A DNA stretch of 64,000 nucleotides, taken from the IMG/VR virus record IMGVR_UViG_3300035703_000012, positions 64,001-128,000 of that record; one strand, 5' to 3'. The notes beneath the pieces were generated by a model. That model searched no databases and was not told the DNA's origin. It saw nothing but the letters and a program-made list of their open reading frames with translations. The position numbers were made by a program, and so were the translations under genes. The DNA comes from a virus. Of the stretch, positions 26,913-59,102 are shown piece by piece. Numbering within the stretch: the first letter of the stretch is position 1; each line of letters begins with the position of its first letter.

Positions 26913-27326
26913 ATGCGTTTCACCGGCACCGTCATCTCCCACCCCACCCGCTTCGACAACGGCGCAGGCGCCTGCCTGGTCCGCCTCACGCGCCAGGACG
27001 ACGCCCCCCTCGGCGAGTCCGTCGTCGTCAACCTCAAGGGCTCCAAGGAGGTCTTCGACCGCCTGACGGACGCCGGCATCGGCAAGGCCGCCCGCATCGC
27101 CTTCGAGGCCGACGGCTGGATCCTCCACCAGCCGGGCGTCGACCGGGTGCTGCCCGCCCGCGGCAGCTACAGCGAGACCCTCATCCACCGGCTCGACAGC
27201 CTCAAGCCCGAGAGCATCGAGGTGCTCGCCTGGGTCAAGCGCGGCAACAGCCTCAGCGAGGCCGCCGAGGGGCTCATCGAGAAGGCCATGTCGGCCTTCT
27301 CCCGCAAGCACCAGGTCGAGGCCTGA
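26913..27326 (+). CDS. unknown protein
   Basis: 137 aa. The N-terminal half (FTGTVISHPTRFDNGAG.., VVVNLKG) is beta-rich; the C-terminal half is helical with a Lys/Arg-rich region. ATG 26913 follows CAAGGAG. No family recognised. Confidence 0.75.
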   Translation: MRFTGTVISHPTRFDNGAGACLVRLTRQDDAPLGESVVVNLKGSKEVFDRLTDAGIGKAARIAFEADGWILHQPGVDRVLPARGSYSETLIHRLDSLKPESIEVLAWVKRGNSLSEAAEGLIEKAMSAFSRKHQVEA

Positions 27327-28728: not shown

Positions 28729-28753
28729 AAAAAAAAGCGTCACGAAGTGACGC
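28729..28753. terminator. terminator shared by convergent genes
   Basis: GCGTCAC-GAA-GTGACGC with an A8 run on the left: on the minus strand this is a stem followed by T8, an ideal terminator for the leftward polymerase gene. Confidence 0.85.
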
Positions 28754-28769
28754 CTGCGTCAGCCGGGGC

Positions 28770-30158
28770 TCAGGCCAGGGGCTTTTCCTCGAGCGTCAGC
28801 CCTTCGATCCCCAGGGCCGTGACCACCCGGTCGAACAGCGCCTGGGGGATGGCGCCCCGTGTAACGAGGCCGTCGTGCTCGTTGCCCTGGAGCTGGAAGC
28901 CCGCAAGGTCCGCCCCGAGCTCCAGGCCCTGGATGACGGCCCGCTCGAGCCCCTGCAAGCGGTGACAAGCCAGCCTGCGCAGACACCCGTGCCGGCTGCG
29001 GGCGTAGTCCGCCTCGAAGTAGTAGCGCGCCTGGCAGGCGTTGCGCACGAAGCGGCCCTGGCGCGTGCGGACAGCCGAATCCAGCTGCCCCTCCAGGTGC
29101 CTGTACCAGGCGTGCAATACCGCGCGCAGCGGCTGCGTCACGGCCGTGAAGTCCTGCTGGACCGCCTCGAGGTCGTCCCCGGCCAGATTTTCTGCCGCCA
29201 GAATGCCCCGGATGCTGTGGCCGTTCACGCGTGCGCCCATCAGGAGGCTGTACAGCAGGTCCTTCCAGCAGCCCACCGACACCCCCAGGGCCGCCGCACA
29301 CAGGCGCTTGCCGTCGGGCTCGGCCAGGTAGTCCTCGAGCCAGCCCGTGTCCACCTGCAGGCCCTGCGCCTCCGCCAGCCGGAGCTCGTGGCGCAGACAC
29401 ACCAGCTGAGCGTTGCGCAAATCGTAGTTGCGCACCCCGGGCACACCCCGGTAGGCCGCCGCCTTCATGGCCCGCGAAGCCGTCTGCAAGCCTCCGCCCC
29501 GCTGGAAAAGCCGCCCCGTGGTCGCCACCTCGTAGGCCGGCACGTACACCCCGAAGGTGTCATCCGTCGCCTCAAACCCCTGCCGGGCCACCGCCAACAA
29601 GCACAGCTGGTCCTGGCGGTAGCGGGCCTGACCTCCCGCTGCCTCACGCCGTGACGCCTGCAGGGCCTGCATCGCCGCATGGTTCACGACCGTGCCGCGG
29701 TAGCTTGTAAGCACCCGCAGGGTCGCTTCAGGCAGCTTGTTTCGCTGCATGTCATAGCGCCCACTTTGTTCCACTGTGGCTGCGCTACCCTGAAACAGAT
29801 CCACCAGGCCCGCCTGCTGCAAGGCCGCCAGCCCCTCGGGCAGACCCGCCAGCAGCGCCTCCCACCAGCACCCTGACACCCGAAAGCGCCGGCTCAAACC
29901 CTGCGACACCGCATGGGGCTGCACCTCCAGCCAGCCTGCCTCGACCAGCCGCGACAGCCGCAGCTTGCGCCCGAAGTGCTGCCGCACCCAGGCCTGACCC
30001 AACGGCACCCAGCCCTCGCCGTAGGCCTGGCACAGCTGCGAGCCCACCACATGCCGCAGCACCTGCGCCTCGGCCTTGTCGAGCCCCGCAACCCAGGCGC
30101 TGACCGCATCGTACACCGCCCGAGGGACCGAGAGCCGCTTGAGCAGATAACCTGCCAA
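28770..30158 (-). CDS. palm-domain polymerase of the PolA / T7-RNAP superfamily type
   Basis: 462 aa. Three motifs appear in the right order and spacing: A at NYDLRNAQL (D246), B at CWKDLLYSLLMGA (K299) and C at NEHDGLV (H428-D429). In family A DNA polymerases and single-subunit RNA polymerases these are the metal-binding Asp, the fingers-helix Lys and the second metal-binding Asp. The GRLFQRGGGLQTASRA segment before motif A also fits the family. There is no 3'-5' exonuclease domain, and the enzyme is much shorter than PolA or T7 RNAP. DNA- versus RNA-polymerase activity cannot be told from sequence. Start TTG 30158 has GGGAGGA at ideal spacing; TTG 30182 is also in frame. Alone on the minus strand, divergent from the transglycosylase. 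Confidence 0.7.
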   Translation of the reverse strand: MAGYLLKRLSVPRAVYDAVSAWVAGLDKAEAQVLRHVVGSQLCQAYGEGWVPLGQAWVRQHFGRKLRLSRLVEAGWLEVQPHAVSQGLSRRFRVSGCWWEALLAGLPEGLAALQQAGLVDLFQGSAATVEQSGRYDMQRNKLPEATLRVLTSYRGTVVNHAAMQALQASRREAAGGQARYRQDQLCLLAVARQGFEATDDTFGVYVPAYEVATTGRLFQRGGGLQTASRAMKAAAYRGVPGVRNYDLRNAQLVCLRHELRLAEAQGLQVDTGWLEDYLAEPDGKRLCAAALGVSVGCWKDLLYSLLMGARVNGHSIRGILAAENLAGDDLEAVQQDFTAVTQPLRAVLHAWYRHLEGQLDSAVRTRQGRFVRNACQARYYFEADYARSRHGCLRRLACHRLQGLERAVIQGLELGADLAGFQLQGNEHDGLVTRGAIPQALFDRVVTALGIEGLTLEEKPLA

Positions 30159-30391
30159 CTTTTGTCCTCCCTCAGCGGACAAAGCCTTTCAAAAACCACA
30201 CCATCAAACACCTTGAATTTGCGTTTTTTCTGTGCTAGAAAAGACCCTATTCTACAATAAATGCCCAAAAAACACCCCGGGAGCGATGCCCTCGTGCGCG
30301 ACCTCTGCGGGGCTTTTCAGGGGCGTTTGCCGCAACCCCTTGTGGCACCTGCTTCTGGACCCACTTCCCCTCCAACACCTCAGGAGGTCTC
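30159..30391. promoter_or_regulatory. AT-rich divergent promoter region
   Basis: Lies between the leftward polymerase and the rightward transglycosylase. It has a T-rich stretch (30220-30232) and a -10-like TACAAT at 30253-30258 on the + strand. ATGCCCAAAAAAC at 30261 repeats a motif from 28068. A short frame starting there has no ribosome site and is not called. Confidence 0.45.
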
Positions 30392-58550: not shown

Positions 58551-59102
58551 ATGGGATACACCCACTACTGGTACCAAAAGCAGGACTGCCCGCCGTACAC
58601 CTGGGCGGTGCTCGTGGCCAAAGCTCGCCGGGCGTTGGCGCCCGAAGTGCCGTTGCTGTGTTACGAGGACACCAGCGACATCCCGAAGCCGGGCTTTTGG
58701 GTCACGGACAACGACGAAATCATCTTCAACGGCCGCGGCGACGACAGCTACGAGACCTTCTGGCTCAACCGCAAGCAAAGTTCTCTCGAACCCTGGCAAG
58801 AACACTACCGAGACGAGGGCGTTTTCAACTGCTGCAAGACCGGTCGTGCGCCTTACGACACCGCGGTCCAGCTGGTGCTGCTGCTCGCCGAGCAGCTGGC
58901 GCCCGAGGCCTACACGCTCAAGAGCGACGGCGACTTGCTCAACTGGCTCTCGGCCATCCACAAGCTCTCGCGCAGGCTGAGCGAGCCGCCTTATGTGCCT
59001 CAGTTCCTGCGCGACAGCCTGCTGCCGACCCTGCTTGAGCAGGACTTGTCAGAAACCGAGCGGACGTTGCTGCAAGAGATTCTCCCGGAGCACGCGGCAT
59101 GA
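58551..59102 (+). CDS. conserved phage protein of the MGYTHYW type
   Basis: 183 aa. The start MGYTHYWYQ, the DEIIFNGRGDDSYETF segment and FNCCKTGRAPYDTAVQLVLLL belong to a family widespread in phages, function unknown. ATG 58551 follows AAGGAG. ATGA overlap with the polymerase gene. Confidence 0.84.
   Translation: MGYTHYWYQKQDCPPYTWAVLVAKARRALAPEVPLLCYEDTSDIPKPGFWVTDNDEIIFNGRGDDSYETFWLNRKQSSLEPWQEHYRDEGVFNCCKTGRAPYDTAVQLVLLLAEQLAPEAYTLKSDGDLLNWLSAIHKLSRRLSEPPYVPQFLRDSLLPTLLEQDLSETERTLLQEILPEHAA

What the first reader, a model, noticed from the sequence alone, without database searches (positions are those of the whole stretch)
28770..30158. Small exonuclease-free palm polymerase on the minus strand
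Motifs YDLRNAQ, K..LLYSLLMGA and EHDGLV appear in the A-B-C order of the PolA/T7-RNAP superfamily in only 462 aa, alongside a complete PolA elsewhere. It could be a primer-making, repair or transcription polymerase. It is isolated, divergently transcribed and has its own terminator.
Basis: partly seen in the sequence, partly recalled or inferred. Interest (0 to 1): 0.7.

Follow-up and report, generated by a model that had tools for sequence, protein, structure and literature searches.

The report
Small extra phage DNA-polymerase-like enzyme
This phage gene encodes a small, proofreading-free relative of DNA polymerase I with a DNA-binding head, one of a family left unannotated in large phages and small plasmids that probably acts as a second, accessory polymerase, although what it makes (primers, gap repair or RNA) is untested.

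Summary
A 462-aa minus-strand gene (28770-30158) has a Shine-Dalgarno site, its own terminator and plus-strand neighbours. It carries a family-A polymerase palm and no exonuclease. AlphaFold (pLDDT 80) places residues 136-462 on Pol theta, T7 DNA polymerase and Pol I (Z up to 20). Residues ~10-105 form a winged helix.

It has no Pfam or PHROG annotation, but I collected about 25 relatives: Erwinia, Dickeya, Yersinia and Vibrio jumbo phages, cyanophage Ma-LMM01, IMG/VR phages, and Calothrix, Polaromonas and Synechocystis plasmids. The family keeps the hairpin Arg, motif-A Asp, motif-B Lys, a QGxE-like helix and an HDG motif C. It lacks the Arg of RxxxK, and the usual Glu steric gate is Gln/His.

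All 11 phage carriers searched also encode a full PolA and a Toprim-type primase, so this is an extra enzyme. In one relative it heads a helicase-PolA-primase cluster. In Ma-LMM01 the relative lies beside IS605 genes, in the phage where a TV-Pol was reported (Iyer 2008).

Best reading: a divergent TV-Pol-like accessory DNA polymerase that starts or extends strands. Activity and sugar choice are unproven. divPolA2, published phage proteins of similar layout, is a separate sequence family.

The parts
28770..30158 (-). CDS, 462 aa, winged helix + family-A polymerase palm/fingers
30166..30170 (-). Shine-Dalgarno GGAGG, 7 nt before TTG start
29844..30131 (-). N-terminal winged-helix domain (about residues 10-105)
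   Evidence: and the domain folded alone, (modest scores, Z up to 6.7, mostly winged helices)
29484..29546 (-). Hairpin with Y209, G215-R216 and Q225 (family-A template-binding Arg, 'TGRL...LQ')
   Evidence: invariant or nearly so in the alignments
29403..29435 (-). Motif A, strand 242-248 with catalytic D246; D+5 is Q251
29232..29276 (-). Motif B / fingers helix, K299 ... G308-A309; no Arg at K-4
28941..28955 (-). QG-L-E (G403, E405) helix, counterpart of the PolA 'QGxxAD' helix
   Evidence: alignment to PolA
28866..28880 (-). Motif C, E-H428-D429-G430-L in a beta-hairpin turn
28735..28755 (-). Intrinsic terminator, stem with T-run
59099..61180 (+). The phage's regular PolA (3'-5' exonuclease + polymerase); context, not part of the gene

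Best explanation
It is an accessory, exonuclease-free family-A polymerase of mobile elements. A winged helix at the N-terminus docks on DNA (inferred). A reduced thumb, palm and fingers then carry out two-metal, template-dependent nucleotide addition with D246 and D429, helped by R216 and K299 (catalytic residues shown conserved; activity inferred). It most likely works like a TV-Pol: it starts or extends DNA strands for the element that carries it, at an origin, a stalled fork or a recombination intermediate, and hands over to the regular PolA. The fold and the catalytic residues are shown by computation. DNA rather than RNA synthesis, and the priming step, are inferred.
For: Fold: model m24a455ff2f6f, pLDDT 80.3, pTM 0.71; the Foldseek hits shown are Pol I, Taq, theta and other family-A polymerases; the top 50 structural alignments are all family-A DNA polymerases, Z 16-20, residues 136-462. 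Conservation: active-site columns invariant across phages and plasmids at 18-28% identity. Sequence profile: the only PDB hit, weak at E 0.28, is DNA polymerase gamma, aligned at the motif-B helix. Context: all 11 phage carriers examined by family search have a PF00476 PolA and a Toprim match, none has PolB, so the enzyme is accessory. In L077 it heads a co-directional cluster with DnaB, PolA and primase. In Vibrio phage GR7B it lies between a UvrD/Rep helicase and RNase HI. In plasmid pW9NP1 it ends about 11 bp before repA. Mobile-element context: Ma-LMM01 gp030 is a family member (profile E 5.8e-18) next to IS605 tnpB/tnpA; PMC2579912 reports a TV-Pol element in that phage and IS605 or resolvase neighbours for TV-Pols. 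The Calothrix members lie two genes downstream of a serine recombinase.
Against: No biochemical data were found for any member. This phage has its own DnaG-like primase, so priming is not needed for lack of another enzyme. The RxxxK Arg that PMC2579912 names for TV-Pols is absent. The D+5 residue is Gln/His, not the Glu of DNA polymerases. In this window the gene stands alone, away from the replication genes. Profile-profile scores to PolA are weak (28.3, against at most 19.5 for 59 of 60 column shuffles, with one unexplained shuffle at 136). No convincing D5 helicase was found in any carrier.
Confidence: 0.55

Rival explanations
1. A repair or gap-filling DNA polymerase that only extends primers, for example at gaps left after RNase H or recombination, with no priming role.
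For: Jumbo-phage copies share a neighbourhood with a Holliday-junction resolvase and, in some, an annotated clamp loader or polymerase III-type gene; GR7B has RNase HI and a Rep-type helicase beside it. Every phage carrier examined has its own Toprim-type primase. Structural neighbours include Pol theta and Pol nu, though a shared fold shows no function.
Against: On a 7-kb plasmid beside repA a replication role is more natural than repair. No repair gene is conserved beside it across the family.
Confidence: 0.25
2. A single-subunit RNA polymerase that transcribes a set of phage genes, with the winged helix as promoter reader.
For: The superfamily includes T7-type RNA polymerases. The steric-gate Glu of DNA polymerases is replaced by Gln or His. 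A winged helix could read promoters. The authors of PMC11348598 left this option open for divPolA2.
Against: The top structural matches are all DNA polymerases. PF00940 found nothing in this record, though that search had no positive control. The D+5 residue is not the Gly of T7 RNA polymerase (my own knowledge of T7 RNAP). Presence on a 7-kb plasmid beside repA points to replication.
Confidence: 0.13
3. A catalytically dead palm protein kept as a DNA-binding regulator of replication.
For: The RxxxK Arg and the steric-gate Glu are lost; the gene is isolated in this phage.
Against: Both metal-binding Asp residues, the hairpin Arg and the motif-B Lys are invariant or nearly so across very distant members, which is hard to explain without catalysis.
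Confidence: 0.05

Closest known systems
TV-Pol (transposon-virus polymerases; Iyer, Abhiman and Aravind 2008, PMC2579912)
   Same: Small family-A core without nuclease, hairpin Arg, two palm Asp, carried by mobile elements. Ma-LMM01 gp030, beside IS605 genes, is in this family and is probably the Ma-LMM01 TV-Pol of that paper (the paper's text gives no gene number, so this is an inference).
   Different: No conserved Arg in the RxxxK motif in the aligned members; N-terminal winged helix rather than the all-helical domain or D5 helicase described; no convincing D5 helicase in any carrier tested.
divPolA2 (divergent phage PolA of PMC11348598)
   Same: Palm/fingers without exonuclease or standard thumb, unknown N-terminal domain, phage also has a regular DNA polymerase, variable neighbourhood.
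   Different: Separate family by sequence: hhalign probability 5-17%, the match limited to the hairpin and motif-A region. divPolA2 keeps R291xxxK295 and D276-P-Y; its motif C is D followed by E or S; its D+5 is Glu in several members, His or Trp in others.
CcPol-MP / PolA-SSB primases (PMC10061031)
   Same: Mobile-element family-A catalytic subunit; the precedent for primer-free DNA synthesis by such an enzyme with an OB-fold partner.
   Different: No adjacent co-directional partner gene in this window; direct sequence comparison was not run here.
Phage PolA replicases (PF00476), such as this phage's own at 59099-61180
   Same: Fold, TGR-LQ hairpin, motif order, QG helix.
   Different: No 3'-5' exonuclease, no Pfam PF00476 match, Gln at D+5 in place of Glu, HDG in place of HDE/HDS/HDA.

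Membership tests
Superfamily A polymerase fold (PolA/T7 type) | Palm with motif A Asp and motif C Asp, fingers inserted between, in A-B-C order | tested here: met
Superfamily A polymerase fold (PolA/T7 type) | Match to Pfam PF00476 by sequence | tested here: not met
   only the phage's regular PolA matches; the Pfam family is narrower than the superfamily
TV-Pol | Beta-hairpin with absolutely conserved Arg | tested here: met
   R216, (alignment shifts at this column in Vibrio GR7B and Ma-LMM01 gp030)
TV-Pol | Fingers RxxxK motif | tested here: not met
   K299 invariant, no conserved Arg at K-4, Ma-LMM01 gp030 included
TV-Pol | No nuclease domain | tested here: met
   winged helix plus polymerase only
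TV-Pol | Linked D5 helicase, or N-terminal helical domain with resolvase/integrase/IS630/IS605 neighbours | tested here: inconclusive
   No D5 over cut-off. IS605 beside the Ma-LMM01 member, serine recombinase near the Calothrix members; none beside the window gene
TV-Pol | Direct sequence relation to a TV-Pol named in PMC2579912 | tested here: inconclusive
   Ma-LMM01 gp030 matches at E 5.8e-18, but the paper text does not give its gene number
divPolA2 | Sequence relation to the AUR84708 family | tested here: inconclusive
   hhalign probability 4.9% and 16.9%; score 35.9 against at most 21.5 in 60 shuffles, over 26 columns only
PolA-SSB primase (CcPol-MP) | Partner OB-fold protein giving ssDNA binding and primer-free synthesis | not testable with these tools
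   No adjacent co-directional gene in the window; activity needs the bench
Single-subunit RNA polymerase | Match to PF00940 / RNAP-type motif A with Gly at the steric-gate position | tested here: inconclusive
   No PF00940 hit, but no control rang; D+5 is Gln/His, not Gly

The most novel reading that the evidence does not exclude
The Gln/His steric gate and the missing RxxxK Arg mark a polymerase with relaxed sugar choice: an enzyme that begins strands with ribonucleotides, guided by its winged helix, and serves as a second, sequence-directed primase or primer-making RNA polymerase in phages that already have DnaG and PolA, and as the element's own starter polymerase on small plasmids.
Probability: 0.2. 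Interest if true: 0.7.

Novelty: new variant of a known kind. Interest (0 to 1): 0.42.

Why it matters
An unannotated polymerase family (PHROG 30690/34692, 'unknown function') runs through jumbo phages, cyanophages and small plasmids and can now be named and tested. It widens the set of minimal family-A cores and shows which active-site parts can be lost (RxxxK Arg) or replaced (steric-gate Glu). If it starts strands, it would be another primase that is neither DnaG nor AEP. It would also help explain why large phages keep two family-A polymerases.

Tried and rejected
Pfam, PHROG and PDB single-sequence searches with the window protein gave nothing usable (PHROG 30690 at E 0.028 became meaningful only through relatives). 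Peptide-pattern searches with the single protein and with a two-sequence alignment found no relative; a hand-made degenerate pattern over the GR-GGG-Q hairpin worked. In genome contigs only the two Calothrix records were true hits; the other pattern hits were unrelated. Rejected: 'the phage's only replicase or only primase', because PolA and a Toprim/DnaG-like primase are present in all 11 phage carriers tested. Rejected as stated: 'identical to divPolA2', because motifs differ and profile scores are low. An OB-fold partner as in CcPol-MP: no gene lies beside this one on the same strand; window 26913-27326 was scanned with no significant match. No RNA polymerase appears among the 50 structural rows shown, but rows beyond 50 were not seen. 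One of 60 shuffled PolA controls gave a score of 136 that I cannot explain; the other 59 were below 19.5.

Full report
What is there. The window is bases 64001-128000 of a 168,796-base virus record. The gene runs from TTG 30158 to 28770 on the minus strand, 462 aa. GGAGG lies 7 nt before that TTG, and a strong intrinsic terminator follows the stop (28755-28735). A codon model trained on the phage calls the frame. The neighbouring genes are on the plus strand, so the gene is a one-gene unit. The record looks like a tailed phage by its terminase-like and tail-like genes. Its terminase is nearest to Microcystis phages such as Ma-LMM01 (30.8% identity). It encodes a PolA with 3'-5' exonuclease (59099-61180), a clamp-like protein (61870-63018), a clamp-loader ATPase and a DnaG-like primase (L059). 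RNase HII and helicase genes were recognised only by eye.

Family. The protein alone matches no known family. tblastn found distant relatives on a Calothrix plasmid (E 1e-23), Polaromonas and Synechocystis plasmids and an Erwinia jumbo phage. A degenerate DNA pattern over the conserved hairpin found IMG/VR relatives, and one of these as query exposed 39 Erwinia, Dickeya, Yersinia and Vibrio phage records, all annotated 'hypothetical protein' in the rows listed. Most phage members match PHROG 30690, with weaker links to 34692, both of unknown function. A tree places the window protein with the Calothrix and L077/L078 proteins (support 92/96), with unsure deep branches and an unusual amino-acid make-up for the window protein.

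Active site. In a 14-member alignment the invariant residues are Y209, R216, Q225, D246, K299, G403, E405, H428, D429 and G430. They map in order on the PolA landmarks: TGR-LQ hairpin, motif A, motif-B Lys, QG helix and motif C. Two usual features are missing throughout: the Arg of RxxxK, and the Glu five residues after the motif-A Asp, here Gln or His. The regular PolA proteins keep Glu there where that part was printed (for example DYSQMELR in L077's phage and DFSGQELS in this phage).

Structure. AlphaFold with 14 relatives gave pLDDT 80.3 and pTM 0.71, with most of residues 230-460 above 90. Foldseek ranks Pol I, Klenow and Taq first (E about 5e-7). The second aligner gives Z 20.2 to Pol theta and 19.1 to T7 DNA polymerase over residues 136-462. 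Residues 1-140 folded alone give a winged-helix topology. The best matches are winged helices such as those of TFIIE, ORC2, RepE and MarR, at modest scores (Z up to 6.7), so the type of winged helix is not assigned. Sequence-profile evidence is consistent but weak: the only PDB hit is DNA polymerase gamma at E 0.28, and hhalign to PolA scores 28.3 against a shuffled range of mostly under 19.5, with one outlier.

What it does. All 11 phage carriers searched have a full PolA, none has PolB, and all have a Toprim match (weak in the window phage, whose DnaG zinc-ribbon match is over cut-off). The enzyme is therefore an addition to a complete set. In L077 it heads a same-strand run containing DnaB, an intein-bearing PolA and a primase. 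In Vibrio phage GR7B it lies between a Rep-type helicase and RNase HI. In Erwinia-type jumbo phages it is a few kilobases from a Holliday-junction resolvase and, where annotated, a clamp loader. On Polaromonas pW9NP1 it immediately precedes repA. Replication is thus the best-supported setting. Priming against gap filling, and DNA against RNA, are inferred only.

Relation to the known. Ma-LMM01 gp030 is a member (profile E 5.8e-18) and lies beside IS605 tnpB and tnpA. Iyer and colleagues (PMC2579912) reported a TV-Pol element in Ma-LMM01 and IS605 or resolvase neighbours for TV-Pols. Very probably gp030 is that TV-Pol, but the text gives no gene number. I do not file the window protein as a TV-Pol outright, because the RxxxK motif named as conserved there was tested and not met, and no convincing D5 helicase is present in any carrier. 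On present evidence it works like one. divPolA2 (PMC11348598) has the same layout but different motifs and only a short profile match. CcPol-MP (PMC10061031) shows that a family-A subunit can prime DNA when paired with an OB-fold protein; no such partner was seen here.

Verdict. The gene is a new, divergent variant of a known kind of small mobile-element family-A polymerase. The fold is close to certain; the activity is not.

Noticed in passing
L077:8541-11591 (also the PolA in L078's contig, L097): The PolA of L077's phage carries an intein-like insertion (Pfam Intein_splicing E 1.6e-5, residues 578-683), just before the motif-A part of the polymerase domain; the L078 phage PolA is of similar length and probably has it too.
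   Followed up: partly
L004:6674-8207 (Synechocystis sp. B12 plasmid unnamed7): The family member is frameshifted: motif C lies in another frame, annotated as a separate small CDS. Decayed gene or sequencing error.
   Followed up: no
L002:12641-13693 continuing at 1-486 (Calothrix NIES-4105 plasmid6): The 512-aa family member crosses the record start and was annotated only as fragments; no recognised Rep protein was found among the ten plasmid genes scanned.
   Followed up: partly
L040:5635-6852 (Dickeya phage JA11): The annotated CDS (405 aa) probably starts too late; the open frame is about 554 aa and would restore the N-terminal domain.
   Followed up: no
L008, L009, L010 (contigs of 128, 64 and 169 kb): Three IMG/VR contigs with different sample ids encode an identical 501-aa family member.
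   Followed up: no
window:39030-39887 (-): Another isolated minus-strand gene; its N-terminal HTH resembles replication initiation proteins (PHROG 8102 E 5e-4, 391 E 8e-4). Possible origin-binding protein of this phage.
   Followed up: no
NC_008562 157489-158636 (Ma-LMM01): The regular PolA of Ma-LMM01 matches PF00476 in two different open frames (327 and 443 aa), so it seems split or interrupted.
   Followed up: no
L006:6858-7361 and counterparts in Erwinia/Yersinia jumbo phages: A 165-175 aa gene, in L006 with an acidic C-terminal part, follows the family member directly, overlapping by about 4 bases in some; no family match. Possible partner.
   Followed up: partly
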